Shown: positions 41,779-54,602 of the stretch, one piece after another
Position numbering within the stretch: the first letter of the stretch is position 1
Layout of the letters: the number at the start of each line of letters is the position of its first letter
Position numbers and translations under genes: made by a program
Assembly: GCA_019635715.1 (NCBI GenBank)
Contig: JAHBYY010000008.1
Span: 1-64,000 of the forward strand
Length of the DNA: 64,000 bases
Reading direction: 5' to 3'
Source: Rhizobiaceae bacterium
GTDB taxonomy: Bacteria; Pseudomonadota; Alphaproteobacteria; Rhizobiales; Rhizobiaceae
The notes under the pieces: generated by a model
What the model saw: the letters and a program-made list of their open reading frames with translations, nothing else
Told to the model about the DNA's origin: nothing
The model's database searches: none

Positions 41779-42303
41779 ATGGCTGGCAGCGTCAACAAGG
41801 TGATCCTGGTGGGAAATCTGGGGGCAGATCCGGAAATCCGGCGGCTGAACTCCGGAGAGCCTGTCGTCAACATCCGTATCGCCACGTCCGAGTCCTGGCG
41901 CGACAAGAACAGCGGCGAGCGCAAGGAAAAGACCGAATGGCACAATGTCGTGATCTTCAACGACAACCTCGCCAAGGTGGCCGAGCAGTACCTCAAGAAG
42001 GGAATGAAGGTCTATGTCGAGGGTCAGCTTCAGACCCGCAAATGGCAGGACCAGAGCGGCCAGGACCGCTACACGACCGAGGTGGTCCTGCAGAAATTCC
42101 GCGGTGAGCTGCAAATGCTCGATGCCCGTGGCGGCGGCGGCGGCGACGGACAGGTGTCGTCCTATGGCGGCGGCGGGCAGAGCCGCGGCGGCTCCGATTT
42201 CGGCCGCTCGGGTTCCGACGATTACGGCCGTGGCGGCGGCGGTGGCGGCGGATCTCGGGGCGGCGGTTCGGCGCGCGATCTCGACGACGAGATTCCGTTC
42301 TGA
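41779..42303 (+). CDS. ssb: Single-stranded DNA-binding protein
   Basis: Coats single-stranded DNA during replication and repair. 174 residues: OB-fold at 1-112 ([60 protein letters not shown]), a Gly-rich disordered linker (about 120-165) and the C-terminal partner-binding tail DLDDEIPF. Length is usual. Upstream neighbour is tpiA rather than the divergent uvrA found in many relatives. Confidence 0.98.
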
Positions 42304-42344
42304 TTGCTCGAATCTGGGCGAAGAGGACCAAGGTGCGACGTGCT

Positions 42345-43631
42345 TCAGCGGCCGCAGAGCCTCAATATGTGATCCGCGGCGCGGTCGCGCCCCGTCGCGG
42401 GCGTCATCACCGCGGCGTTCGCCACAAGTCTGTCGCGCATGACGTGGTCGTGAAGCAGATCGACGATCGCCGTGGCAAGCTCGCCTGGCGTCCAGGTGCT
42501 GCGCGGCAGGCGGCGGCCGGTGCCGGTCTCCTCGGCGCGCCGCGCATTGTCGTGGCCGTCCCAGCAATAGGGCATGATCAGCGACGGAACGCCGAAGGCC
42601 AGCGCTTCGCAGAAGCTGTTGTTGCCGCCGTGGTGGATGAACAGGTCCGACTTGGCCACGACCGAAGGCTGCGGAAACCACGAGTCGAGATGGACGTTGT
42701 CCGGCACCGCCCGGTAGGTCTCCCGAAAACTGCCGGCATTGACCAGGAAGCGCGCCGGCAGGCTTGAGAACACCGCGAGCATGCGCTCGATCAGGCTGGC
42801 ATCCATCGCGCCGAGGCTGCCGAAGCTGACATAGACCAGCGGTCCGCCGTTGCGCGGCAGGGCAGGGACGTCGAAGGGCGCTTCCTCCCTGATGCACCCT
42901 TCCAGATAGACGTGGGTGCGGGGATCGAGTTTTCTGGTCCGCCGGCGGCGGACGATCGTCGGCGTCAGCAGCAGGTTGAGGTGGGGCGAGGGCTCGAGGA
43001 ACAGCGTGCGGTCGAGCGCCGGCAGGCCGCGGCTGACGCGGAAGGCGTTGTAGCGCGTCTGGACCGGTCCGACGCCAGCCGCGTAGCGGGCTTCGAAGGC
43101 CGCCCGTGCCGCATCGTCGGCGGCCAGTCCCGACAGGTAGGGCGGGACGCCGGGGTCGGGAAGCTCCGTCTCGGCGCAGGAGACGACGCGGACCCACGGG
43201 CAGTCGGCGGTCGCGATCGCCGGAAACATGATGACATTGTCGAGCACGGCGACGTCGGGTTTCAGGCGGGCGAGCAACGCCTTCAGCGGCGCCTCGGCCT
43301 TGATCGCGGTGTCGACGATCGCCTCCCAGGTCGGCGCGACATAGGTCTCGATCTGCTCTTCGGCCGGCAGGCGGAAATGCGGGACATGGCGGTTGACGAA
43401 GGCCTGCCAGTAGTTCTCGCTGGCGGCGTGGCTCTCCTCGCGGGGCAGGACATATTCCTGGAATCCGTAGTCGCCGAACATGCCGGCGAAGCCGGGATGG
43501 CAGATGAAGACCGGGCGGGCGCCGCGCTCGCGCAGCGACTGGGCGATGCCGACGCAGTTGAGCGCCGCGCCGAAGCTCGCCTCGGGAAAGAAGGCGACGG
43601 TCGGCCGCCCATTGGCCTTCCGTTCATTCAT
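42345..43631 (-). CDS. GT1-type (UGT/MGT-like) glycosyltransferase A
   Basis: 428-residue GT-B fold glycosyltransferase of the UDP-glycosyltransferase/macrolide type. N-terminal acceptor domain starts with VAFFPEASFGAALNCVGIAQ; C-terminal donor domain contains LVYVSFGSLGAMD and the donor motif HHGGNNSFCEALAFGVPSLI followed by PYCWDGHDNARRAEETG. The family PSPG motif HCGWNS appears here as HHGGNN. No signal peptide or membrane segment, so it acts in the cytoplasm. It overlaps the end of the GntR gene by 8 bp (43624-43631) and is co-transcribed with it. A paralog lies at 49047 in the opposite orientation. Acceptor and sugar donor are unknown. Confidence 0.88.
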   Translation of the reverse strand: MNERKANGRPTVAFFPEASFGAALNCVGIAQSLRERGARPVFICHPGFAGMFGDYGFQEYVLPREESHAASENYWQAFVNRHVPHFRLPAEEQIETYVAPTWEAIVDTAIKAEAPLKALLARLKPDVAVLDNVIMFPAIATADCPWVRVVSCAETELPDPGVPPYLSGLAADDAARAAFEARYAAGVGPVQTRYNAFRVSRGLPALDRTLFLEPSPHLNLLLTPTIVRRRRTRKLDPRTHVYLEGCIREEAPFDVPALPRNGGPLVYVSFGSLGAMDASLIERMLAVFSSLPARFLVNAGSFRETYRAVPDNVHLDSWFPQPSVVAKSDLFIHHGGNNSFCEALAFGVPSLIMPYCWDGHDNARRAEETGTGRRLPRSTWTPGELATAIVDLLHDHVMRDRLVANAAVMTPATGRDRAADHILRLCGR

Positions 43632-44571
43632 GGGAAGCGGGGCGCCGTATGGTGCCGGTCAGGGCGGGCGCGCCGCGATTTGCCGCATGCGGCCGCTGCG
43701 CGTGCGACAGCCTCAGATGGACCCGCATCAGGTCGGCGGCGATCTCCTCCTGGCGGCTTTCGAGCTGATCGAGGATCGCCAGGTGCTCGCGCGTCGACTG
43801 CCGCAGCCGATAGACCGAGACGCCGGGCATCGCGCCGGGCACCCGGCGCAGGCGATGATGCGCGCCCAGCGCGTCGGCCAGGAAGCGGTTGGCGCAACCC
43901 GACGCGACCATCGCATGAAACTCCCGGTCGAGGCGCTGGCACTCGCGGATGTCGAAGGCTGAGTCCGGCATGGCGAGCAGGACCTCGGTGCCGGCGCGCA
44001 GCGTCGCGGCCTTGGCCCCATCCAGCCTGAATCCGGGCGCCAGGATCGCCGCGGGTTCGGTCAGCAGCCGGAACTCGTAGCTGTCGGCGATCGCGTCCGG
44101 GCCGTCGGGGGCCGGACGAAAGAGCCAGGCCTGACCCGAGGCGCGCTCGACGAACCCGTCTTCGGACAGTCTTTTCAGTGCCTTTAGTACCGTCTGCCGC
44201 GCCACTCCGTAGCGCCGCGCCAGATCGCCGGCGGCCACGCTGGCGTCCAGTCTTCGGGCGGCGCGGTCCCGCAGGATGGACTCGCCCAGATCGTCCTCCT
44301 CGGCGACGGGCAGGCTGGCGGCGCCGGCGTCGCTCGCGGCCGGGTCGGCGGCGAGGCGGTAGCCGCCGTCCAGGTCGACCGCGATCAGGCCTCTCTCCGC
44401 GAGAAGGCGGAACGCCGCCCGCACGGGGGTGCGCGAGACGTTGCACAGCGAAGCGATCTGCTGTTCCGGCAGGCGGGCGCCGAGCTGCAGGCCCCGCTCC
44501 GTGGCGATGTCGAGGATTTTCTGGGCGAGATCGATGTGGTTGGTGCGGGGCTTGCGGACGGCAGCTTGCAT
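43624..44571 (-). CDS. GntR-family regulator with two winged-helix domains and FCD-like domain
   Basis: 315 residues. First GntR wHTH at about 10-65 (LAQKILDIATERGLQLGARL, SLCNVSRTPVRAAFRLLAER). A second, separate wHTH-like unit at about 95-150 (DLGESILRDRAARRLDASVA, LARRYGVARQTVLKALKRLS, DGFVERASG). Then an FCD-like ligand-binding domain (about 160-300; AFDIRECQRLDREFHAMVAS, ANRFLADALGAHHRLRRVPG, TREHLAILDQLESRQEEIAA). Tandem GntR HTH units in one chain are unusual. Start ATG 44571 (MQAAVRKPRTNH). It is divergent from the transporter operon, which it probably represses. Confidence 0.88.
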   Translation of the reverse strand: MQAAVRKPRTNHIDLAQKILDIATERGLQLGARLPEQQIASLCNVSRTPVRAAFRLLAERGLIAVDLDGGYRLAADPAASDAGAASLPVAEEDDLGESILRDRAARRLDASVAAGDLARRYGVARQTVLKALKRLSEDGFVERASGQAWLFRPAPDGPDAIADSYEFRLLTEPAAILAPGFRLDGAKAATLRAGTEVLLAMPDSAFDIRECQRLDREFHAMVASGCANRFLADALGAHHRLRRVPGAMPGVSVYRLRQSTREHLAILDQLESRQEEIAADLMRVHLRLSHAQRPHAANRGAPALTGTIRRPASHE

Positions 44572-44757
44572 GGTTCGATCGCCGGGCGGCGGTTCCGGTT
44601 GCGGCCGACAATTCCCGGCCATCCGTAAATTATGGATTGACGTATTTTTTTCCGCAATAGTACTGTCAGGAGAATAACGACCGGAACAGGTCGGGGACCA
44701 TCGGACGGTTCGTCAGCGGACCGGACGCATCTGCTGATCAACGAATGGGAGTTCGTC
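44572..44757. promoter_or_regulatory. Divergent promoter region of the GntR/transporter cluster
   Basis: 186 bp, AT-richer in its middle. A possible -35 TTGACG lies at 44637-44642 followed by a T-run and TAGTAC at a short spacing of about 15 bp. GntR operators would be expected here, but I saw no clear palindrome. Confidence 0.4.
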
Positions 44758-45825
44758 ATGACTGCGCCGATTTCGTCCGGGCATTTCGCCTGGGCCGCAC
44801 GCTCCGCCATTTTCGGGATCGCACTGGCGCTGGCAGGGCCGGCCGCCGCCCAGAACCTGGTGATCTCCAACTGGGACGGCTACATGGCGCCCGACGCGAT
44901 GGAGGCCTTGAAGGCGGCCACCGGCGTCTCGGGCGAGGTGGTGGTCCATGCCACCAACGAAGAGATCATGGGCAAGCTGATCGCCTCCGGCGGCAAGGGC
45001 TACGACGTGGTCTTCGTCTCGTCGCCGTTCGCCGAGGTGCTGAACAAGCTCGGACTGATCGAGCCGGTCGATCACGCCAAGGTCCCGAACCTGGCCAACC
45101 TCTACCCGGAGGCGACGACGCTCGCCTACGATCCCGGCAACACGTTTTCGGTGCCCTATACCTGGGGCACGACCGGGCTCTGCTACCGCTCCGATCTGGT
45201 GAAGGCGGAGCCGGCCTCCTGGAACGACCTGCTGAAGCCCTCCGACGACATCAAGGGCAAGACCACGATGCTGGCCACCGATCGCTGGCTTCTGGCGGCC
45301 GGCCAACTGGCGCTCGGCTATTCGGTCAACGAGACCGATCCGGCCAAGATGGAGGAGGTGAAGAACCTGCTGATCTCGGCCAAGAAGACACTGCTCGCCT
45401 ATGACGACACGACCTTCTACTCCAAGCTCGTCTCCGGCGAAGCGCTGCTCGTCCAGGCCTGGGACGGCTGGTGCAACTACGGCATCACCGACAACAAGGA
45501 CATCAAATATTTGATCCCGAAGGAGGGGTCCGATCTCTGGCTCGACACCATGGTCGTGATGAAGGCCTCCGAGCACAAGGACGAGGCGTTCAAGTTCGTG
45601 AACTTCATCCTCGAAGCCAAGAACCACGCCTGGGCGGCCGAGAACATCCTGTACAAGGTGCCGAACAAGGCGGCGATGGACAGCCTGCCGGCGGAACTCG
45701 GCCAGACCTATCCGAACATGGCGATGCCGGTCGCCGATATGGTCAAGTTCGAAGTGTTGCGCGACGTCGGCGAAGCGCAGCGCGCCTATTCGAAGATCGT
45801 CAGCGAGATCAAGGCGGCGCAGTAG
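44758..45825 (+). CDS. Polyamine/opine-type ABC transporter substrate-binding protein
   Basis: 355 residues of the PotD/PotF-like family. Signal peptide ends near GPAAAQ; mature N-terminus NLVISNWDGYMAPDAMEALK is the characteristic strand-loop of PotD-like proteins, followed by TNEEIMGKLIASGGKGYDVV and VPYTWGTTGLCYRSDLVKAE. Trp-rich substrate site features (ISNWDGY, QAWDGWCNYG) suggest an amine ligand by family. First gene of the plus-strand operon, followed by a perfect 45-bp inverted repeat and then the permeases. The true ligand is unknown. Confidence 0.9.
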   Translation: MTAPISSGHFAWAARSAIFGIALALAGPAAAQNLVISNWDGYMAPDAMEALKAATGVSGEVVVHATNEEIMGKLIASGGKGYDVVFVSSPFAEVLNKLGLIEPVDHAKVPNLANLYPEATTLAYDPGNTFSVPYTWGTTGLCYRSDLVKAEPASWNDLLKPSDDIKGKTTMLATDRWLLAAGQLALGYSVNETDPAKMEEVKNLLISAKKTLLAYDDTTFYSKLVSGEALLVQAWDGWCNYGITDNKDIKYLIPKEGSDLWLDTMVVMKASEHKDEAFKFVNFILEAKNHAWAAENILYKVPNKAAMDSLPAELGQTYPNMAMPVADMVKFEVLRDVGEAQRAYSKIVSEIKAAQ

Positions 45826-45874
45826 AGTTGGCGACGCGAACGCAGTTTATCCGCGTGCGGCGCGCCGCCCTATC

Positions 45875-46031
45875 ACCCCCCTCTGGCCTGCCGGCCATCT
45901 CCCCCTCAAGGGGGGAGATTACCTTCTTACGAGCACATCGTTCAATCACTGCGATGGCGGAACCGGATGAGACGTCAACGCGAATGATCTCCCCCCTTGA
46001 GGGGGAGATGGCCGGCAGGCCAGAGGGGGGT
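45875..46031. repeat. Palindromic intergenic repeat, perfect 45-bp arms (element A)
   Basis: Left arm 45875-45919 and right arm 45987-46031 are exact reverse complements over 45 bp, separated by 67 bp. Each arm begins with CCCCCCTCTGGCCTGCCGGC and ends in an inner hairpin CCCCCTCAAGGGGG. It fills the gap between the binding-protein gene and permease 1 and ends 18 bp before the permease start. Related copies are at 50365-50440 and 51554-51746. It resembles RIME-type mosaic repeats of Rhizobiales. In RNA it would fold into a very stable stem-loop that may set the ratio of binding protein to permease. Confidence 0.95.
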
Positions 46032-46048
46032 GTATTGGGGAGGCTCGC

Positions 46049-46909
46049 ATGACCTCCCGCTCCGCCCTGCTGATGGCGCCCGCGCTGGCCTGGCTCACCG
46101 GGCTGATGGTGGTGCCGTGCGCCCTGGTGCTGGCGCTGGCCTTCTTCCGGCGCGGCATCTACGGCGGCATCGAGTACACCTTCACGCTCGAAAATTTCGG
46201 CATGGTGCTGAACCCGCTCTATGCGGGCATCTTCCTCAATTCGGCGCGGATCGCCGGCACCGCGACGGTTATCGCGGTGATCATCGGCTATGCCGCGGCC
46301 TACGCCATCGCCGCGTCGCCGCGCCGCCTTCAGCCGGTTTTCCTGTTCTTCGCGGTGCTGCCCTTCTGGTCGAACTACCTGATCCGCACCTATGCCTGGA
46401 TCGTGCTGCTCAACCGCGAGGGCCTGGTGACGCAGCTTCTGCGCTGGCTCGGCTACGAGGGCGAACCGCCTGCCTTGCTGTATACGGAAGGCGCGGTGAT
46501 CACCGGACTGGTCTACAACTACCTGCCCTTCGTCGTGCTTGCCTGCTACGCGCCGCTGTCGCGGCTCAATCCCGAGCTTGCCGAGGCGTCGCGCGATCTC
46601 GGGGCTACGGCGCTCACCACCTTCCGGCGCATCGTGTTGCCGCTGACGCTGCCCGGCATAGCCGCCGGCGCGGTGTTCGTCTTCGTGCTGTCGATCGGCA
46701 ACTTCGTCACCCCGGCGCTGCTCGGCGGCGGGCGGTTCCAGATGATCGGCAATCTGGTCTACGACCAGTTCCTCACCGCCAACGACTGGCCGTTCGGCGC
46801 GGCGCTGTCGATGGCGCTGATCGCGATCATGCTGCTGCTGCTGACGCTGCAGGCCTTCGCCGCCGAGCGCGCGTCGAGCCGTGTCGTGGTGCGGGAGGAC
46901 GCGACGTGA
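46049..46909 (+). CDS. Polyamine-type ABC transporter permease 1 (PotB-like)
   Basis: 286 residues, six predicted helices, start MTSRSALLMAPALAWLTGLM. EAA-type loop SRLNPELAEASRDLGATALT then TFRRIVLPLTLPGIAA, and the PotB-like ending ALLGGGRFQMIGNLVYDQFL. ATG at 46049 follows GGGGAGG. Its stop overlaps the GTG start of the second permease. Confidence 0.93.
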   Translation: MTSRSALLMAPALAWLTGLMVVPCALVLALAFFRRGIYGGIEYTFTLENFGMVLNPLYAGIFLNSARIAGTATVIAVIIGYAAAYAIAASPRRLQPVFLFFAVLPFWSNYLIRTYAWIVLLNREGLVTQLLRWLGYEGEPPALLYTEGAVITGLVYNYLPFVVLACYAPLSRLNPELAEASRDLGATALTTFRRIVLPLTLPGIAAGAVFVFVLSIGNFVTPALLGGGRFQMIGNLVYDQFLTANDWPFGAALSMALIAIMLLLLTLQAFAAERASSRVVVREDAT

Positions 46910-47676
46910 TCGCCCGCCGCATCGTCCTCGTCCTCACCTTCGCCTTCCTCTACATCCCGATCGGGGTGCTGGTGGCGCTGTCCTTCAACGAAGGCGGCCT
47001 GCCGACCGCGTGGTCCGGCTTCTCGTTCAAGTGGTACGCGTCGCTCGCCGGCAATCGTCCCATCCTGTCGGCGGCGCTGAATACGCTGATCGTCGCCGTG
47101 GTCTCGACGGCGATCGCCACGCTGCTCGGCACCCTGCTCGCCATCGGCGTCGAGATCCGTCGCCGGCGCGGCGCGGCGCTGGAAGCGCTGATCTTCGCGC
47201 CGATGATCATTCCCGACATCGTGCTGGCGATCGCGCTGCTGTCCTTCTTCTCGATGATCAACCTGACGATGGGCCTGCATACGATCGTTCTGGCTCACGT
47301 CGTCTTCAACATCGCCTTCGTCTGCTCCGTCGTCCGCGCCAGGCTGAAGACCTTCGACTGGTCGATCACCGAGGCCTCCGCCGATCTCGGAGCCTCGGCC
47401 TTCACGACGTTCCGGCGTGTCACCTTGCCGGTGATCCTGCCGGCGGTGGTGGCCGGCGCGCTGCTCGCCTTCACCCTGTCGGTCGACGAGTTCATCATCG
47501 CCTATTTCACCGCCGGCGCCGGCCGCGCCTCCACGACGCTGCCGATGCAGATCTATTCGATGATCCGCTTCGGCATCACGCCGGAGATCAATGCGCTGGC
47601 GACGATCGTCATGGCGGTCAGCGTCACCGCGCTGGCGTTGTCGCAGCGTCTCAACCGCGGGGTGGTCGGGCAATGA
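46906..47676 (+). CDS. Polyamine-type ABC transporter permease 2 (PotC-like)
   Basis: 256 residues, six predicted helices, starting with GTG at 46906 (IARRIVLVLTFAFLYIPIGV) overlapping the stop of permease 1 (GTGA). EAA-type loop ITEASADLGASAFTTFRRVT then LPVILPAVVAGALL; the later DEFIIAYFTAGAG is typical of PotC. It is followed by palindromic element D and then the ATPase. Confidence 0.93.
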   Translation: MIARRIVLVLTFAFLYIPIGVLVALSFNEGGLPTAWSGFSFKWYASLAGNRPILSAALNTLIVAVVSTAIATLLGTLLAIGVEIRRRRGAALEALIFAPMIIPDIVLAIALLSFFSMINLTMGLHTIVLAHVVFNIAFVCSVVRARLKTFDWSITEASADLGASAFTTFRRVTLPVILPAVVAGALLAFTLSVDEFIIAYFTAGAGRASTTLPMQIYSMIRFGITPEINALATIVMAVSVTALALSQRLNRGVVGQ

Positions 47677-47736
47677 CCTGTCGGCTTGCCTTTGCAAATG
47701 ATCCTGCGCCCTTCGCCTTTGGCGAGATGCCGAGGC

Positions 47737-47887
47737 ATCACCCCCTCACCGGCCCTTCGGGCCACCTCTCCCCCTGCCCGGGGGAGAGGAAATGCACTGC
47801 CGCGAAGCCGGCGTTTTTCCAGCTTCGGCACCTCTCCCCCGGACAGGGGGAGAGGTGCCGAGCGAAGCGAGGTGGTGAGGGGGTGAT
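47737..47887. repeat. Palindromic intergenic repeat, different family (element D)
   Basis: Outer arms ATCACCCCCTCACC (47737-47750) and its complement (47874-47887). Inside are two independent hairpins: CCTCTCCCCC-TGCC-GGGGGAGAGG (from about 47764) and GGCACCTCTCCCCC-GGAC-AGGGGGAGAGGTGCC (47827-47859). It fills the 289-bp gap between permease 2 and the ATPase. It is built from GAGAGGTGCC-type units and shares no arm with elements A-C. Confidence 0.85.
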
Positions 47888-47965
47888 ACCTCTACAAGCG
47901 GGAGAAACCGGCTCGGAGAGGATAGGAACCTCTCGCGACTGCGGTTGCCTGCGAAGGACGGAACG

Positions 47966-49030
47966 ATGAAGACCTTGCTCTCCATCGATGCCGTCTCGAA
48001 AAACTTCGGCCGCGTCGTGGCGATCGACGACGTATCGCTGGCGATCCGCGAGAACGAGTTTTTTGCGCTGCTCGGCCCGTCCGGATGCGGAAAGACCACG
48101 CTGCTCAGGATGCTGGCCGGCTTCGAGACGCCGAGCGGCGGAAAGATCCTGCTCGACGGCAAGGACATTTCGAACGTTCCGCCGAACCGGCGTCCGGTGA
48201 ACCTGATGTTTCAGTCCTACGCGCTGTTCCCGCACATGACCGTGCGGGCCAACATCGCCTACGGGCTGGAGATGGAGCGCCTGCCGGCGGAAAAGATCCG
48301 CGGGCGCGTCGACGAGATGCTGGCGACGACGCAGCTCGCAGCACTCGCGGACCGCAAGCCGGAGCAGCTTTCCGGCGGGCAGCGGCAGCGCGTGGCGCTG
48401 GCGCGCGCCCTGGTCAAGCGGCCGCGCCTGCTTCTGCTCGACGAACCGCTCGGGGCGCTCGACAAGAAGCTGCGTGCCACCATGCAGATCGAGCTGAAGC
48501 GGCTGCAGCATGAAGTCGGCATCACCTTCGTCATCGTCACGCACGACCAGGAGGAAGCGCTGGTCATGGCCGACCGCATGGCGGTGCTGCGCGACGGCAG
48601 GCTGCTGCAATGCGACACGCCGCACGAGGTCTATGAGCGGCCGGCGGATCGCTTCGTCGCCGACTTCATCGGCGTCATGAATTTCTGCCAGGGCCGGCTC
48701 GACGCCTCGGGGGTCGGCATGCCGGACGGCTCGTGCATTCGCGGTCGGTTGCCGGAGGGCGCCGCGGCCGGAGCCTCGGCGACCGCCGCCGTGCGCCCCG
48801 AGCGCATCCTGCTGCGGCCTACCGGCGACGTCGACAACCGCGCGGCGGGCACCGTCGAGGCGCTCGCCTATCACGGGCTCGACCTGCAGCTTCACCTGCG
48901 CACCGACCTTTCCGAACGACCGTTCCTCGTCCGCGTCACGGCCGACGCTGCCGACCGGCAGCCGCTCGCCGTCGGCGACCGGGTCGAGATCGGCTGGAGC
49001 GCGGCCGATACACGCATCTTCAAGGACTGA
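47966..49030 (+). CDS. Polyamine-type ABC transporter ATP-binding protein (PotA-like)
   Basis: 354-residue ATPase: Walker A GPSGCGKTT at 37-45, FQSYALFPHMTV, signature LSGGQRQRVALARAL, Walker B LLLLDEPLGALD, switch VTHDQEEA; TOBE domain at about 280-350. Start ATG 47966 (MKTLLSIDAVS) after AAGGACGG; a GTG/ATG 21 bp upstream is less likely. Followed after 16 bp by glycosyltransferase B, so the glycosyltransferase belongs to the transport operon. Confidence 0.94.
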   Translation: MKTLLSIDAVSKNFGRVVAIDDVSLAIRENEFFALLGPSGCGKTTLLRMLAGFETPSGGKILLDGKDISNVPPNRRPVNLMFQSYALFPHMTVRANIAYGLEMERLPAEKIRGRVDEMLATTQLAALADRKPEQLSGGQRQRVALARALVKRPRLLLLDEPLGALDKKLRATMQIELKRLQHEVGITFVIVTHDQEEALVMADRMAVLRDGRLLQCDTPHEVYERPADRFVADFIGVMNFCQGRLDASGVGMPDGSCIRGRLPEGAAAGASATAAVRPERILLRPTGDVDNRAAGTVEALAYHGLDLQLHLRTDLSERPFLVRVTADAADRQPLAVGDRVEIGWSAADTRIFKD

Positions 49031-49046
49031 ATTCCGGAGGCTGACA

Positions 49047-50321
49047 ATGGCACAGAAGACGATCGCATTCTTTCCCGAGGCGGCTTTCGGACCGGCGCTC
49101 AACTCGGTCGGCATCGCCCAGGCGGTCGAGGCGAGGGGGCACAAGGCGGTGTTCCTGTCCGATCCGGGTTTCGTCGGCGTCTATCAGGGCTACGGCTTCG
49201 AGGCGCATCCGGTGAACCTCTCGGCGCCGATGCCGCCCGAGCAGATGGCGAAGTTCTGGGAGGACTTCATCAACGGCCATATTCCGAACTTCGCCAAGTC
49301 GCCCCACGACCAGGTCGACAATTACGTGAAGGATTGCTGGACGGCGATCGTCGACAGCGCCAAATGGGCGCAGAAGGATTTGCCGGGCGTGCTGGCCCGG
49401 ATCAGGCCGGATATCATCTGCGTCGACAACGTCATCCTGTTTCCGGCGATCAAGCAGTTCGGCAAGCCCTGGGTGCGCATCATCTCGTGCTCGGAGAACG
49501 AGATCGAGGATGAGGGCATCCCGCCGCATCTCTCGGGCTGCGGCGAGAACGACCACGCCTGCCACAAGGCCTATCGCGATCATTTCAACGCGGTCATCAG
49601 GCCGATCCATGACGACTTCAATGCCTTCCTGGCGACAACCGGCGAAGCGGCCTATCCGATCGGGCAGTTCTTCGAGGCCTCGCCCTACCTCAACCTGCTG
49701 CTCTATCCGGAGGCAGTGAAGTTCGCGCGCAAAGTGCCGCTCGACCCCAAGCAGTTCCAGTACCTGGAGGGATGCGTCCGCAAGGAGGCGCCGTACACGG
49801 TGCCGACCTTCGCCCGGAACGAAGACGGACCGCTGATCTACGTGTCGTTCGGATCACTCGGCGCCGGCGACACGGCGCTGCTGAAGCGCATCATCGCGGC
49901 CATCGGCAATTCGCCCTACCGGGCGCTGGTCAATGTCGGCGACTACAAGGGCGAGTATGCCGATCTTCCCGGCAATGTGATCGTGGACGGCTGGTTCCCC
50001 CAGCCGTCGGTGATCCCGCAGGTCGACGCCGTGATCCATCACGGCGGCAACAACTCGTTCACCGAGTGCCTCTATTTCGGCAAGCCGGCGATCATCATGC
50101 CCTATGTGTGGGACGGCCACGACAACGCAACGCGCGTCCAGGAGACCGGACACGGTTTCAAGATGCCGCGCTACGAGTGGAGCGACGCCGACCTTCTGGG
50201 CAAGATCGAGACCTGCCTGACCGACCCGGCGATGAAGGCCAGGCTCGCCGCGACTTCGAAGCACATGCAGGCACAGAACGGCCCGGAAAAGGCCGCCGGT
50301 CTGCTGGAGACGTTGCTGTAG
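49047..50321 (+). CDS. GT1-type (UGT/MGT-like) glycosyltransferase B
   Basis: 424-residue paralog of the protein at 42345. Same blocks in the same order: IAFFPEAAFGPALNSVGIAQ, LIYVSFGSLGAGD, WFPQPSVIPQVDAVIHHGGN, then FGKPAIIMPYVWDGHDNATR and ETGHGFKMPRYEW. By eye the two share roughly 45% identity over the donor domain. ATG at 49047 follows CCGGAGG, 16 bp after the ATPase gene. No signal peptide. Acceptor unknown; a link to the imported compound is inferred from the operon. Confidence 0.88.
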   Translation: MAQKTIAFFPEAAFGPALNSVGIAQAVEARGHKAVFLSDPGFVGVYQGYGFEAHPVNLSAPMPPEQMAKFWEDFINGHIPNFAKSPHDQVDNYVKDCWTAIVDSAKWAQKDLPGVLARIRPDIICVDNVILFPAIKQFGKPWVRIISCSENEIEDEGIPPHLSGCGENDHACHKAYRDHFNAVIRPIHDDFNAFLATTGEAAYPIGQFFEASPYLNLLLYPEAVKFARKVPLDPKQFQYLEGCVRKEAPYTVPTFARNEDGPLIYVSFGSLGAGDTALLKRIIAAIGNSPYRALVNVGDYKGEYADLPGNVIVDGWFPQPSVIPQVDAVIHHGGNNSFTECLYFGKPAIIMPYVWDGHDNATRVQETGHGFKMPRYEWSDADLLGKIETCLTDPAMKARLAATSKHMQAQNGPEKAAGLLETLL

Positions 50322-50364
50322 ATCGCGAGATCGGGATTGCTAGATATGATTGTTCCCTACGTCG

Positions 50365-50440
50365 CCCCCCTCTGGCCTGCCGGCCGCCCTGGCCCGAGAC
50401 CAGTGGCTCGGGCCAGGGCGGCCGGCAGGCCAGAGCGGGG
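50365..50440. repeat. Palindromic intergenic repeat with 34-bp arms (element B)
   Basis: Left arm 50365-50398 and right arm 50407-50440 pair over 34 bp with one mismatch and an 8-nt loop ACCAGTGG. Outer part matches element A (CTCTGGCCTGCCGGCC); the inner GCCCTGGCCCGAG is shared with element C. The right end abuts cupin 1, whose start codon is 10 bp further on. Confidence 0.95.
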
Positions 50441-50449
50441 TGGGTGCGC

Positions 50450-50812
50450 ATGACCTCCTCCGCCCCGCACCTCCACGACGCCTCCACCCGCATCGACCTT
50501 GTCGACTGGGGCATCCAGCCGGATGCGCTGGAGGGAACGTCGCATTCCACCGGCCGGCTCGTCCACAAGGGGCCGGGAAACCGCCCCGAAAGCGGCATAT
50601 GGGTCTGCACGCCCGGCCGCTGGCGCCTGGCGATCCCGCGCGACGAGTTCTGCCACTTCGTCACCGGCCGCGCGACCTATCGGTCGGACGACGGCGAGGT
50701 GATCGAGGTCGAGGCCGGAAGCGTCGTGATGTTCCCGGCCGGCTGGAGCGGCGACTGCACCGTCCACGAGACGATGCGCAACGTCTACTACCTGACCGAC
50801 AGGGAGAGCTGA
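50450..50812 (+). CDS. Cupin_3 (DUF861) protein 1
   Basis: 120-residue single cupin: LVDWGIQPDALEGTSHSTGR, then WVCTPGRWRLAIPRDEFCHF and AGSVVMFPAGWSGDCTVHET. The usual cupin metal motif HxH is absent; the position reads DEFCHFVTG, as in the DUF861/EutQ-like family. ATG at 50450 lies 10 bp after palindromic element B, and its only SD-like sequence (GGGGTGGG) is made of the end of the repeat. First of three tandem paralogs. Function unknown; this fold includes ureidoglycine and ethanolamine-related enzymes and binding proteins. Confidence 0.85.
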   Translation: MTSSAPHLHDASTRIDLVDWGIQPDALEGTSHSTGRLVHKGPGNRPESGIWVCTPGRWRLAIPRDEFCHFVTGRATYRSDDGEVIEVEAGSVVMFPAGWSGDCTVHETMRNVYYLTDRES

Positions 50813-50815
50813 GAC

Positions 50816-51157
50816 ATGCCGACGCCGAACTGGAGCGATGCCGCGGCAGTGGCGCTCGACGATTGGGGCCCCGGCGCCAACACGCTTGAGGGGCAGCCGC
50901 AGGCATCGGGAAAGATCCTCTCCGTCAATGCCGACGGTTCCAGCGAATGCGGCCTGTGGTCCTGTACGCCGGGCAAGCGGCGGGTGGCGTTCGCTGCCGA
51001 CGAGTTCTGCTACTTCACCGGCGGCCGCGGAACCTATGTCCACGAGTCCGGCGAAGAGATCCCCGTATCGGCCGGAACCGTCATCTTCTTTCCCGCCGGC
51101 TGGAGCGGAATTTCGATCATCACCGAGACGCTCAGCAAGGCGTTCATGTGCCGCTAG
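50816..51157 (+). CDS. Cupin_3 (DUF861) protein 2
   Basis: 113 residues starting MPTPNWSDAAAVALDDWGPG, with LEGQPQASGKILS, LWSCTPGKRRVAFAADEFCY and VIFFPAGWSGISIITETLSK. Paralogous to cupins 1 and 3 and the most diverged of the three (Tyr instead of His after DEFC, and no VHET). Starts 3 bp after cupin 1. Confidence 0.85.
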   Translation: MPTPNWSDAAAVALDDWGPGANTLEGQPQASGKILSVNADGSSECGLWSCTPGKRRVAFAADEFCYFTGGRGTYVHESGEEIPVSAGTVIFFPAGWSGISIITETLSKAFMCR

Positions 51158-51180
51158 GCACCCATCCAAGGAATTGTCCG

Positions 51181-51525
51181 ATGACCACCCCTGTCATGAA
51201 AAGCCCCCTCGCCATCACCGACCTGGTCGATTGGGGCGTCATTCCGACAATGATCGAAGGCGAGAGCCGCACCTCCGGAAAGCTCCTCCACAAGGGCCCG
51301 GAAGGCCGCTCCGAATGCGGCCTGTGGGTCTGCACGCCCGGCAAATGGGAATGCCACGTGACGCGCGACGAGTTCTGCCACTTCCTCGAAGGGCGCTGCA
51401 CCTATGTCCACGAGAGCGGCGAGGTCATCGAGATCGTGCCGGACACCGCCGCCTTCTTCCCGCAGGACTGGAAGGGCGTCTGCACGGTCCATGAGACGAT
51501 CAAGAAGGTTTACATGATCCGGTGA
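51181..51525 (+). CDS. Cupin_3 (DUF861) protein 3
   Basis: 114 residues starting MTTPVMKSPLAITDLVDWGV, with LHKGPEGRSECGLWVCTPGK, RDEFCHFLEG and VCTVHETIKKVYMIR. Start ATG 51181 is 23 bp after cupin 2, preceded by CAAGGAATTG. Close to cupin 1 over its whole length, so the three arose by tandem duplication. Followed by element C and the aldehyde dehydrogenase. Confidence 0.85.
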   Translation: MTTPVMKSPLAITDLVDWGVIPTMIEGESRTSGKLLHKGPEGRSECGLWVCTPGKWECHVTRDEFCHFLEGRCTYVHESGEVIEIVPDTAAFFPQDWKGVCTVHETIKKVYMIR

Positions 51526-51553
51526 GGGTGGCGGGAATGATATTTCGCGGAAG

Positions 51554-51746
51554 ACCCCCCTCTGGCCTGCCGGCCGCCCTGGCCCGAGCCACTGGTCTCG
51601 GCCCGTCCTTCGGACCCCCCTCAAGGGGGGAGATCAGCCATTGCAACGACCGCGCCACATCTCCATCGCTGATGGTTTGCGAAAGCAACGCGGCAGCGGT
51701 GATCTCCCCCCTTAAGGGGAAGATGGCCGGCAGGCCAGAGGGGGGT
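51554..51746. repeat. Mosaic palindromic intergenic repeat (element C)
   Basis: Outer arms 51554-51575 and 51725-51746 are exact complements over 22 bp (CCCCCCTCTGGCCTGCCGGC and so on). The left half then continues with GCCCTGGCCCGAG as in element B, and an inner CCCCCTCAAGGGGGGAGAT unit as in element A pairs with CTCCCCCCTTAAGGGG-type sequence on the right. It looks like recombination of units from A and B. It ends 17 bp before the aldehyde dehydrogenase start. Confidence 0.9.
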
Positions 51747-51763
51747 CTTGAAGGCTGCGGACC

Positions 51764-53272
51764 ATGACGCTTTCCCAATATGAGCCCACGCTTTTTCTCA
51801 ATCCGCGTTTCCTGCCGATGGCCGGAGCGACGAAATCCGTCATCGACCCGGCGACCCTCGAAACGGTCGGCGCCATCGCCGCCGCGACCGATGCCGAGAT
51901 TGCCACGGTGCTCGACGCCGCGACCGCCGCGCAGTCGCAGTGGAAGCGCCTCGATGCCAAGTCGCGCGCCAGGGCGCTGCATGCCGTCGCCAACGCCATC
52001 GAGGCAGCCGATTTCACGCGCTGCGCCGAACTCATGGTGCGCGAGATGGGCAAGCCCTATCCCGAGGCGATCGGCGAGATCGCCAATTGCGCACCGGTGT
52101 TCCGCTATTATGCCGAGATGGCGCGCGACGAGGCGGGCAAGATCGCCGGCACGACCCAGGCGGGCTCGTTCCAGTATGCGCGCTACGAGCCCTACGGCGT
52201 CTCGGTGCACATCATGCCGTACAACTTTCCGATCCTGCTGATGTGCTGGACGGTCGCCGCCTCGCTCGCCGCCGGCAATGCCTGCATCATCAAGCCGGCG
52301 GAGGCGACGACGCTGTCGACGCTCGACTACATGCAGGTTTTCCGCAGCCTTCCTGCGGGACTGGTCTCCTGCCTTCCGGGAGGCTCCGATACCGCACAAA
52401 CTCTGATCCGCTCCGAGCGCACCCATGCGGTGGCGTTCACCGGCTCGGTCGCGGCGGGCAGGGCGGTGGCGATCGCCTGCGCCGAGCGCATGAAGCCATG
52501 CGTCATCGAGGCCGGCGGCTCCGATCCGATGATCGTGTCGAAACATGCGCCGCTGGAGGTCGCGGCGGCCGGCGCGGTGACGGCCGCATTCCACCTCTCC
52601 GGGCAGGTCTGCACCTCGGCGGAGCGCTTCTTCGTCGTCGACGAGATCCACGAGCGCTTCGTCGAGCTGTTCGCCGCGCAGACGCGGCGCCTGCGCATCG
52701 GCAATGGCCTGGAAAAATCCGAGATCGGGCCGCTGGTCAGCGAGGCGGCGCGGGCCAAGGTGATGCGTCTTGTCGACGAGGCGATCGCGCAGGGTGCCAT
52801 CGCGGTCACTGGAGGGCGCATTCCGCCTGCGCACAAAATCGGCTGGTTCTACGAGCCGACGATCCTGACCGGGGTGACGCCCGACATGGCGATCTGCCGC
52901 GAGGAGTGTTTCGGGCCGGTCGCCGCGATCTGCCGGGTCCGGGATTTCGACGAGGCCATCCGCCTTGCCAACGATACGCCCTTCGGACTGGGCGCATCGA
53001 TCTTCACCACGGATCTCGCCGAAGCGCACGAGGCGGCCGAGCGGCTGGAGGCCGGAATGGTGTGGGTCAACAATCCGCTGATCGACAATGATGCGCTGCC
53101 TTTCGGCGGCTGGAAGGCCTCCGGGCTCGGCCGAGAACTGGGGCGCCAGGGTCTGGATGCGTTCCGCCGCTCCAAGATGGTCATCATCGACCACAAGCCG
53201 GTGGTGCAGGACTGGTGGTATCCCTACCCGGACGAATGGTTCCGCGCCGCCGGAGGCCGCAGGCACGTCTGA
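51764..53272 (+). CDS. NAD(P)-dependent aldehyde dehydrogenase
   Basis: 502 residues of the succinate-semialdehyde/lactaldehyde group of ALDHs. Catalytic Cys283 in SGQVCTSAERFF, general base Glu249 in EAGGSDPMIV, cofactor region PYNFPILLMCWTVAASLAAG and AFTGSVAAGRAVA. Glu-Leu-Gly-Gly of most ALDHs is Glu-Ala-Gly-Gly here. C-terminal PFGGWKASGLGRELG is canonical. Last gene of the transporter-glycosyltransferase-cupin run. It would oxidise the aldehyde left after loss of an amino group; the amine oxidase or transaminase that this needs is not in the cluster. Substrate unknown. Confidence 0.92.
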   Translation: MTLSQYEPTLFLNPRFLPMAGATKSVIDPATLETVGAIAAATDAEIATVLDAATAAQSQWKRLDAKSRARALHAVANAIEAADFTRCAELMVREMGKPYPEAIGEIANCAPVFRYYAEMARDEAGKIAGTTQAGSFQYARYEPYGVSVHIMPYNFPILLMCWTVAASLAAGNACIIKPAEATTLSTLDYMQVFRSLPAGLVSCLPGGSDTAQTLIRSERTHAVAFTGSVAAGRAVAIACAERMKPCVIEAGGSDPMIVSKHAPLEVAAAGAVTAAFHLSGQVCTSAERFFVVDEIHERFVELFAAQTRRLRIGNGLEKSEIGPLVSEAARAKVMRLVDEAIAQGAIAVTGGRIPPAHKIGWFYEPTILTGVTPDMAICREECFGPVAAICRVRDFDEAIRLANDTPFGLGASIFTTDLAEAHEAAERLEAGMVWVNNPLIDNDALPFGGWKASGLGRELGRQGLDAFRRSKMVIIDHKPVVQDWWYPYPDEWFRAAGGRRHV

Positions 53273-53282
53273 TCCGCAAGGC

Positions 53283-54602
53283 TCAGTCGCGGTCCACATC
53301 GTCGCGCGGATGCGCGTTGCGGCCCTTGCCGAAGGTGTAGCCGGTCTCCACCGCGGCGCGCCCGAATTTTTCGCGCAGCACGTCCATCGCGCCCTCGGCC
53401 ATCGCCCGCTTGCGCGACCCCTCGTCGACGAGGTCCGGCGGATCGGCCCGGCCGTCATCTGACAGATCGCCGACGCCGATGCCGAGCAGGCGATAGCGTG
53501 TCCCGTCGGTTTCCCTGGCGAGCAGTTGCAGCCCGGTCTGGAAGATGCGGTCGGCAAGCCGCGTCGGATCGGCCAACTGGCGGTTGCGCGTGCGGAGCTT
53601 GAAATCCTGCGTCTTCAGTTTCAGCACGACCGTCCGCCCGGCGATATGGGCGCGCTTGAGCCGCGCCGACACCTTCTCCGAAAGCGCGCGCAGCACCGGA
53701 ACGAGATCGTCCATCGTCGCGAGATCGCTATCGAACGTGGTCTCGGCCGAGACGCTCTTGGCGTCATGGTCGGGATGCACCTGCCGCACGTCGTCGCCGC
53801 GCGACAGCCGGTAGAGCCGCGTGCCCATCGTGCCGTAGCGCCGCAGCAGGTCGGCCTCGTCCATCTTCTGGATCTGGCCGATGGTGCGGATGCCGTCCCT
53901 TTCCAGTGTCGCGGCGAACGCCTTGCCGACGCCCCAGATCAGCGTGACCGGCTGCTGCGCCAGGAACCCCACCGCCTCGGCCTGGCCGATGACGGCGAAG
54001 CCGCGCGGCTTGCGCAGGTCGGACGCGACCTTGGCGAGGAACTTGCAGTAGGAGAGGCCGACGGAAACCGTGATGCCGACGTCGCGTTCGACGCGGCGCG
54101 CGAAATCGCCCAGCACCAGCGCCGGCGGGCGTCCGTGCAGGCGCTGCGTGCCGCTAAGGTCGAGGAACGCCTCGTCGATGGAGATCGGCTCGACCAACGG
54201 GGTCAGCGCCTGCATCATGGCGCGGACCTCGCGGCCGACGCGCACGTATTTCTCCATGTCGGGCTTGATCACCACGGCCTCGGGGCAGGCTTCCAGCGCC
54301 TTGAACATCGGCATGGCGGAGCGTACCCCGTGGATGCGGGCGATGTAGCAGGCGGTGGAGACGACGCCGCGCTTGCCGCCGCCGACGATCACCGGACGGT
54401 CTTTCAGCGCCGGGTTGTCGCGCTTCTCGACGGCCGCATAGAACGCGTCGCAGTCGATATGGGCGAGATGAAGCACATAGAGTTCCTCATGCCGGACGAT
54501 CCGCGGACTGCCGCATTTCACGCAGCGCGGGGCGGCCGACGTCTGCACCGATAGACAATCGCGGCAGAACCCGTGCTCGGGATTGTTGACAACTATCGCC
54601 AT
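53283..54602 (-). CDS. dinB: DNA polymerase IV (DinB) with N-terminal zinc ribbon
   Basis: Y-family translesion polymerase, 439 residues. Residues 13-30 form a CxxC-x10-CxxC zinc ribbon (FCRDC and RCVKC) that E. coli DinB lacks but several rhizobial copies have. Polymerase core: [20 protein letters not shown] with Asp50, [31 protein letters not shown] and [20 protein letters not shown]; little-finger domain at about 290-400. Start at 54602 ([11 protein letters not shown]). A perfect SOS box lies 8 bp upstream, so it is LexA-controlled. Confidence 0.94.

What the first reader, a model, noticed from the sequence alone, without database searches (positions are those of the whole stretch)
42345..53272. 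Candidate undescribed system: amine-type ABC importer with paired glycosyltransferases, triple cupin and aldehyde dehydrogenase
Seen: a GntR regulator and glycosyltransferase A run minus; binding protein, two permeases, ATPase, glycosyltransferase B, three cupins and an ALDH run plus, with tight spacing, so they act as one regulon. Known: PotD-type importers take up polyamines, opines or related amines; DUF861 cupins occur near amine and ureide catabolism; UGT-type transferases glycosylate small molecules. Inference: the cell imports an amine or amino-sugar type compound, with glycosyl transfer and aldehyde oxidation as steps. No oxidase, transaminase or deaminase is present, so the chemistry is not explained by a standard putrescine pathway. 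I do not recognise this gene set from any described pathway.
Basis: partly seen in the sequence, partly recalled or inferred. Interest (0 to 1): 0.75.

Follow-up and report, generated by a model that had tools for sequence, protein, structure and literature searches.

The report
Conserved amine-import, sugar-transfer, oxidation operon
This is a real gene set, shared by many soil and water microbes, in which a cell seems to import an amine-like molecule, attach a sugar with unusual sugar-transfer enzymes and oxidise an aldehyde; why a sugar is needed is unknown and can now be tested.

Summary
The gene set is real. Window 42345-53272 holds GT-A and GntR (minus) and a PotD-type SBP, two permeases, ATPase, GT-B, three EutQ/DUF861 cupins and ALDH (plus). 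It is not a chance neighbourhood: of 397 genomes of the order, 21 have GT-B and this SBP, 2 GT-B only, 1 SBP only (Fisher p 1e-31). In one genome the two lie on different large contigs and still co-occur. Close cupin relatives occur in the same genomes. Relatives also occur in Rhodobacterales, another class of the phylum, haloarchaea and actinobacteria. Best reading: an amine catabolic route with an obligatory glycosyl-transfer step, perhaps a sugar tag that is removed and recycled, like the gamma-glutamyl tag of the Puu pathway. Substrate, sugar, step order and cupin role are inferred. Six paper searches aimed at the gene set (open-licence PMC) listed no description.

The parts
42345..43631 (-). 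GT-A, GT1-type glycosyltransferase paralogue, 428 aa; catalytic His position is Ala (FGAALN), DG instead of DQ
   Evidence: (46% identical to GT-B)
43624..44622 (-). GntR/FCD regulator with two winged-helix stretches; start may be 44571
44636..44664 (+). ATTGACGTATTTTTT...CAATAGTACT element in the divergent GntR/SBP region; core TTGACGTA in 79 of 84 such intergenic regions (window included)
44758..45825 (+). PotD-family solute-binding protein; diamine acids D168/E171 replaced by T/W, W34 Y37 W229 W255 D257 Y293 kept
45874..46032 (.). palindromic repeat element between SBP and permease 1 (46-nt perfect arms)
46049..46909 (+). permease 1 (PotB-like)
46906..47676 (+). permease 2 (family PermC)
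47732..47892 (.). another palindromic element between permease 2 and ATPase
47966..49030 (+). ABC ATPase (PotA-like)
49047..50321 (+). GT-B, GT1-type glycosyltransferase, 424 aa; catalytic His position is Pro16, D127 kept, HHGG and E340 kept, DG357 instead of DQ
50365..50441 (.). palindromic repeat element between GT-B and cupin 1
50450..50812 (+). cupin 1 (Cupin_3/DUF861)
50816..51157 (+). cupin 2 (Cupin_3/DUF861), the variable one
51181..51525 (+). cupin 3 (Cupin_3/DUF861)
51551..51749 (.). palindromic repeat element between cupin 3 and ALDH
51764..53272 (+). aldehyde dehydrogenase; catalytic Cys283, Glu249, Asn154 invariant in 102 of 102 aligned members, window included

Best explanation
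A dedicated catabolic operon for a small cationic amine with one main amino group. The PotD-type importer brings it in. GT-B (with GT-A where present) transfers a sugar from a nucleotide sugar to the imported amine or to an intermediate made from it, as an obligatory step. An amine-to-aldehyde enzyme (not in this operon; beside the core in relatives) makes an aldehyde, which the ALDH oxidises to an acid. A later step frees the sugar, perhaps helped by the cupins, and some relatives re-phosphorylate it with a dedicated sugar kinase. By function this is like the Puu pathway, with a sugar tag in place of gamma-glutamate. Shown: gene content, conservation, co-inheritance, loss of the GT catalytic His, change of the SBP pocket, intact ALDH active site, linked oxidases and sugar kinases. 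Inferred: substrate class, sugar, order of steps, tag and recycling, cupin role.
For: GT-B and SBP both present in 21 of the 24 genomes that have either, out of 397. Cupin 3 at E<=1e-50 in 18 genomes of a 259-genome sample, each a GT-B genome. In G228 GT-B with cupins and SBP with permeases are on different contigs of 149 and 62 kb and both kept. Distances of GT-B, SBP and ALDH correlate at r 0.87-0.94 over 97 loci, largest of 200 permutations 0.25 (no housekeeping control was run). R144, E150, E152, D155 and aromatic W71, F74, F82, Y93, W98 are nearly invariant in GT-A and GT-B, parallel to the aromatic-plus-Asp SBP pocket. Alternative amine-to-aldehyde genes adjoin the core in relatives, median gaps 2-38 nt. 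Sugar kinases in three lineages: AmgK-like between cupins and ALDH in 8 of 121 loci, and a second AmgK homologue elsewhere in each of 5 such genomes tested; ROK plus phosphoglucosamine-mutase-like in 2 haloarchaea; glucosamine-kinase-like plus SIS in Nonomuraea. In one relative (L145) an alpha-amylase-family glycosidase gene lies 73 nt upstream of GT-B on its strand.
Against: The window genome gave no match to AmgK-like or saccharopine-DH-like queries (genome 85% complete, and the tool warns that an empty answer shows little), and AmgK-like is in 8 of 121 loci, so recycling is not general. Kinase, mutase, PuuA-like and DAO scores lie below the curated cut-offs. The one glycosidase seen (L145) is a single case; other loci were not searched for glycosidases family by family. 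In both haloarchaea the Pot SBP is of another family and not beside GT-B. In the actinobacterial GTs E150 and D155 are Pro and Gly and DQ is kept. Some loci have GT-B and a cupin without the Pot importer (e.g. L154). Nothing shows which sugar or acceptor is used.
Confidence: 0.4

Rival explanations
1. Salvage of an amino sugar or glucosaminide: the SBP binds an amino sugar (aromatic residues stack on the ring, Asp binds the amine), the GT works in reverse or on salvage products, kinases and SIS or mutase feed the sugar into metabolism, and the aglycone is oxidised by the ALDH.
For: Kinases and isomerase of the amino-sugar kind near the GT in actinobacteria, proteobacteria and haloarchaea; aromatic-rich SBP pocket with one Asp; in G228 the SBP stands near a ROK-type regulator (tblastn match) and SDR-like and ThuA-like ORFs named by eye; a glycosidase beside GT-B in L145; Manso 2019 (PMC6520443, passages read) reports tight association of actinobacterial glucosamine kinase with a SIS gene and a GT1.
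Against: AmgK-like kinase in 8 of 121 loci only; PuuA-like and DAO genes are commoner; family scores lie below cut-off.
Confidence: 0.22
2. Conjugation as an end point: the GT inactivates a toxic imported amine, or builds a glycosylated amine (osmolyte, signal, secondary metabolite) whose precursor is made with the ALDH.
For: Nearest solved relatives are mite UGTs, detoxifying by general knowledge, and macrolide GTs score next; Manso 2019 places the actinobacterial GlcN kinase in predicted biosynthetic clusters (passages).
Against: An importer for a toxin is unlikely; PuuA-like, oxidase and ALDH genes point to breakdown; no exporter was seen among the recurring families identified (not every family was scanned).
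Confidence: 0.2
3. The GT esterifies the acid made by the ALDH to a high-energy 1-O-acyl sugar, a stand-in for CoA activation. A carboxylate needs no His base, and later acyl transfer frees the sugar.
For: Catalytic His absent wherever the column has a residue, nucleotide-sugar motif kept, R144 invariant also in the actinobacterial rows; an ALDH downstream of GT-B in 101 of 114 loci with enough flank; sugar kinases in some lineages.
Against: No acyltransferase seen among the recurring families identified (not every family was scanned); acidic residues near R144 favour a cation.
Confidence: 0.1
4. Ordinary polyamine uptake with unrelated neighbours.
For: PotD-family annotation of the importer.
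Against: Co-occurrence, conserved order and co-divergence; loss of two diamine-contact acids.
Confidence: 0.03

Closest known systems
Puu pathway (gamma-glutamylated putrescine catabolism, E. coli; recalled)
   Same: Amine import, ALDH step, regulator; in Mesorhizobium and others PuuA-like and DAO oxidase genes adjoin GT-A.
   Different: Window operon has no PuuA/B/D; the GT pair and cupins are the constant core; the PuuA-like score is far below the equivalog cut-off.
PotABCD spermidine/putrescine importer
   Same: SBP, two permeases and ATPase of the same family.
   Different: PotD D168 and E171 are T and W in 101 of 101 cassette SBPs.
GT1 glycosyltransferases: mite UGT203A2/UGT202A2, MGT/CalG/OleD
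   Different: Catalytic His replaced by Pro or Ala, DQ by DG in GT-A and GT-B.
Actinobacterial glucosamine kinase - SIS - GT1 association (Manso 2019, PMC6520443)
   Same: The Nonomuraea locus has a kinase of that family, a SIS gene and a GT related to GT-B beside an SBP of our family.
   Different: Whether the paper's GT is of the same subfamily was not tested; the passages read mention no such importer or ALDH in the cluster.
DUF861/EutQ cupins (3bcw, EutQ, PpnP)
   Same: Fold (3bcw TM 0.87).
   Different: No invariant or nearly invariant His in 30 aligned cupins of the cassette.

Membership tests
Puu pathway | gamma-glutamyl-amine synthetase, oxidase and hydrolase encoded with the ALDH | tested here: not met
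   None in the window operon; in relatives PuuA-like is in 53 and DAO in 49 of 121 loci; nearest PuuA-like in the own genome is 45% identical on another contig.
Pot polyamine importer | SBP, two permeases, ATPase of the Pot family | tested here: met
Pot polyamine importer | PotD polyamine-contact acids (positions recalled: D168, E171, D257) | tested here: not met
   D257 kept, D168 to T and E171 to W in 101 of 101
GT1 UDP-glycosyltransferase | GT-B fold and nucleotide-sugar motif | tested here: met
GT1 UDP-glycosyltransferase | catalytic His of the N-domain (GHxN/GHxxP; role recalled) | tested here: not met
   Pro in 118 of 119 GT-B rows, Ala in 76 of 82 GT-A rows, the remaining 1 and 6 rows being gaps; His present in 7lvy
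GT1 UDP-glycosyltransferase | sugar-transfer activity | not testable with these tools
   needs an enzyme assay
(S)-ureidoglycine aminohydrolase / metal cupins | conserved metal-binding His set | tested here: not met
   no invariant or nearly invariant His in 30 sequences
ALDH superfamily | catalytic Cys, Glu and Asn | tested here: met
   102 of 102
AmgK/MurU sugar recycling | anomeric sugar kinase in the unit | tested here: not met
   in 8 of 121 relative loci, not in the window operon; no match in the own genome

The most novel reading that the evidence does not exclude
A sugar-tagged amine degradation pathway shared by bacteria and haloarchaea: His-less GT1 enzymes put a sugar on an imported amine (or its product) as a removable protecting or activating group, oxidation proceeds on the tagged molecule, cupins without a classic metal site help remove the tag, and the freed sugar is recycled by a dedicated kinase in some lineages.
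Probability: 0.28. Interest if true: 0.85.

Novelty: new variant of a known kind. Interest (0 to 1): 0.62.

Why it matters
Glycosyltransferases are rarely obligatory parts of small-molecule breakdown. A highly conserved GT pair co-inherited with an importer across phyla, with the usual catalytic base lost in every member that could be read, gives a directly testable new chemistry and a function for many genes now annotated as polyamine transporter, glycosyltransferase and cupin. If the sugar tag is real, it is a second solution to the problem that the gamma-glutamyl tag solves in putrescine breakdown.

Tried and rejected
Rejected: random neighbours; a plain putrescine/spermidine route; ureide enzymes for the cupins; an Rfam RNA in 42000-54000 (no match at gathering score). 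Inconclusive: the promoter scan found no sigma-70 match although TTGACGTA is conserved; the exact long pattern matched 4 of 186 loci, so only its core is conserved. The GT pocket could not be inspected because model coordinates are not given; which residues face the acceptor is general knowledge of GT1 loops. The library holds open-licence PMC papers only. Of papers, passages of PMC6520443 were read; all others were seen as listings. A PpnP-like N-glycoside cleavage by the cupins was considered because PpnP is at rank 9 of the fold search, but the similarity is of the general cupin kind. Singletons not used as evidence: GbcA-like Rieske protein in L156 and allantoinase-like protein in L180, both far below cut-off.

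Bias to note: 80 of the 121 loci are the best of 231 hits of one scan and mostly Mesorhizobium; two pairs (L088/L170, L104/L134) have identical GT-B DNA over the 800 bases compared, so 119 are distinct. The evenly drawn order sample is the fairer count; that searches drew the same 397 genomes is inferred from handles and numbers. Related genomes are not independent, so the Fisher p overstates. One search counts either ALDH family as ALDH, counts low-identity loci without the cassette (L136, L137) as misses, and counts linked families anywhere in the fetched locus; at 50% identity or more PuuA-like is in 50, DAO in 46 and ALDH2 in 21. One search used the 97 loci with exactly one GT-B, SBP and ALDH.
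Full report
Observation. Permease 2 starts at 46906, the ATPase at 47966, and the cupins are 50450-50812, 50816-51157 and 51181-51525. GT-A and GT-B are paralogues, 46% identical, and the only two matches at E<=0.001 in the 4.57 Mb, 85% complete genome. SSB (41779) and an impB/mucB/samB polymerase (53283) flank the unit. SSB was found in no locus of another genome and the polymerase in one, about 5 kb from ALDH.

Conservation. A scan of species genomes with GT-B found 231 relatives, of which 80 loci were kept, at 82-90% identity, in Mesorhizobium, Shinella, Rhizobium, Aquibium and Rhodobacterales such as Defluviimonas, among others. The order GT-A(-) GntR(-) SBP PermB PermC ATPase GT-B cupin(s) ALDH(+) recurs in most of them. 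At the stated cut-offs GT-B relatives are in 23 of 397 genomes of the order, 13 of 385 of the class and 8 of 398 of the phylum, own genome counted each time. The phylum sample includes a genus of another class with 6-7 Mb genomes (unnamed; Pseudomonas is my guess); in its family 12 of 148 have it. Plasmid records add Ruegeria, Natrialba and Natronorubrum (the latter two 58-59% identity) and, at 36-38%, Nonomuraea and Streptomyces. Over 121 long loci, counting only those with enough flank, a cupin lies within 600 nt downstream of GT-B in 110 of 118, an ALDH in 101 of 114, ATPase upstream in 103 of 121, permeases in 102 of 116, SBP in 96 of 108, GT-A on the other strand in 82 of 103, GntR in 83 of 105.

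Co-inheritance. In the 397-genome sample the SBP (E<=1e-90) is in 22 genomes and GT-B (E<=1e-60) in 23; 21 have both, G055 has only an SBP (47% identical), G079 and G331 only GT-B; Fisher p 1.3e-31. In G228 GT-B and cupins lie on contig C4 (149 kb), SBP and permeases on C35 (62 kb), and neither fetched stretch holds the other, so the link looks functional and not only positional. G038 and G114 also have them on different contigs, but those assemblies are broken. In a sample of 259 genomes cupin 3 matches at E<=1e-50 in 18, each a GT-B genome; 10 further genomes have only a 30-36% match and none of these is a GT-B genome. Pairwise distances of GT-B, SBP and ALDH correlate at 0.87-0.94 over 97 loci, largest of 200 permutations 0.25, and GT-A with GT-B at 0.87 over 82; shared descent alone would also give this. 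GT-A forms one branch with full support in a tree of 86 rows.

The importer. The SBP is a PotD relative. Mapped on PotD contact positions (recalled), W229, W255, D257 and Y293 are kept in 101 of 101 cassette SBPs and W34 and Y37 in 97, the other 4 being gaps; D168 is T and E171 is W in all 101, T35 is D in 90. A diamine bound at both ends is therefore unlikely; a compact cation in an aromatic pocket fits. In the two haloarchaea the Pot-type SBPs near the GT cluster are not of this family and not adjacent.

Cupins and ALDH. The cupins are Cupin_3, modelled at pLDDT 97.0, nearest to DUF861 3bcw, EutQ and, lower, PpnP. Among 30 aligned cupins E45, W49, E64, Y75, F93 and W97 are among the invariant columns and no His is, so a classic metal site is unlikely. 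The ALDH keeps Cys, Glu and Asn in 102 of 102 and scores best to betaine-aldehyde and aminobutyraldehyde families, below their cut-offs.

Linked enzymes in relatives. Somewhere in the locus, PuuA-like ligase is in 53 of 121, a DAO oxidase (nearest model pipecolate oxidase) in 49, a second ALDH in 25, a saccharopine-dehydrogenase-like protein in 22, another DAO oxidase in 3. As direct same-strand neighbours: GT-A with PuuA-like 46 (median gap 5 nt), PuuA-like with DAO 46 (2 nt), GT-A with second ALDH 15 (19 nt), ALDH with saccharopine-DH-like 22 (38 nt), ALDH with the other DAO 3 (12 nt). So different lineages bring different candidate amine-to-aldehyde enzymes to one constant core. Sugar kinases recur: AmgK-like between cupins and ALDH in 8 loci, with a second, weaker AmgK homologue elsewhere in each of 5 genomes tested; ROK kinase and a phosphoglucosamine-mutase-like protein in both haloarchaea; glucosamine-kinase-like and SIS proteins beside the importer in Nonomuraea. 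These kinase, mutase and ligase scores are below the curated cut-offs. In L145 an alpha-amylase-family protein is encoded 73 nt upstream of GT-B on the same strand, the one glycosidase noticed. Manso et al. 2019 (PMC6520443, passages read) describe tight association of actinobacterial glucosamine kinase with a SIS and a GT1 gene, and in one species PGM and UDPGP.

Mechanism. The simplest account that uses all parts: import of a cationic amine, sugar transfer as a required step, oxidation to aldehyde and acid, and release of the sugar, which some lineages recycle. It resembles the Puu pathway in logic. Import, oxidation and nucleotide-sugar use are family inferences; tag, release and recycling are hypothesis. 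The window genome gave no AmgK-like or saccharopine-DH-like match, so here the sugar may re-enter central metabolism and the amine-oxidising enzyme, if any, lies elsewhere; a PuuA-like gene 45% identical is on contig C62.

Local peculiarity. Palindromic elements with CTCTGGCCTGCCGGCC arms (69 exact arms in the genome, none of the reversed control) occur three times in this operon; all six exact arms of the 64 kb window lie here. Another palindrome lies at 47732-47892. The PermC-ATPase gap of 289 nt, against -4 in most relatives, is the clearest effect.

Verdict. Real, conserved, and not described in what six aimed searches of open papers listed; function class likely, substrate and sugar unknown.

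Noticed in passing
window 45874-46032, 47732-47892, 50365-50441, 51551-51749: Palindromic mobile-looking repeats between genes of this one operon; 69 exact arm copies genome-wide, and all six exact arms of the window lie here.
   Followed up: partly
window 49047-50321: Closest solved structures to GT-B are spider-mite UGTs, thought (recalled) to come from bacteria by gene transfer; this GT family may be close to the donor lineage.
   Followed up: no
window 43624-44622: GntR regulator carries two winged-helix stretches before the FCD domain, an unusual layout.
   Followed up: no
L185 (G228 C35): SBP and permeases unlinked from GT-B, near a ROK-type regulator, two SDR-like proteins and a ThuA-like protein (the last three named by eye).
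   Followed up: partly
L137 10001-11001: A GT-B-like stretch in three pieces inside a type VI secretion island of a Pseudomonas plasmid, near VgrG and PAAR genes.
   Followed up: no
L148, L150, L154: GT-B-like gene and cupin with an OYE-type flavoprotein (L148, L150), a GcvT-like protein (L148, L154) and a Liv-type importer (L150, L154; binding protein of L154 is Peripla_BP_6) and no Pot SBP in the fetched stretch.
   Followed up: partly
L150 8753-11706; L148: Two convergent GT-B-like genes close together in each locus, a pairing apart from the GT-A/GT-B one.
   Followed up: no
   Followed up: partly
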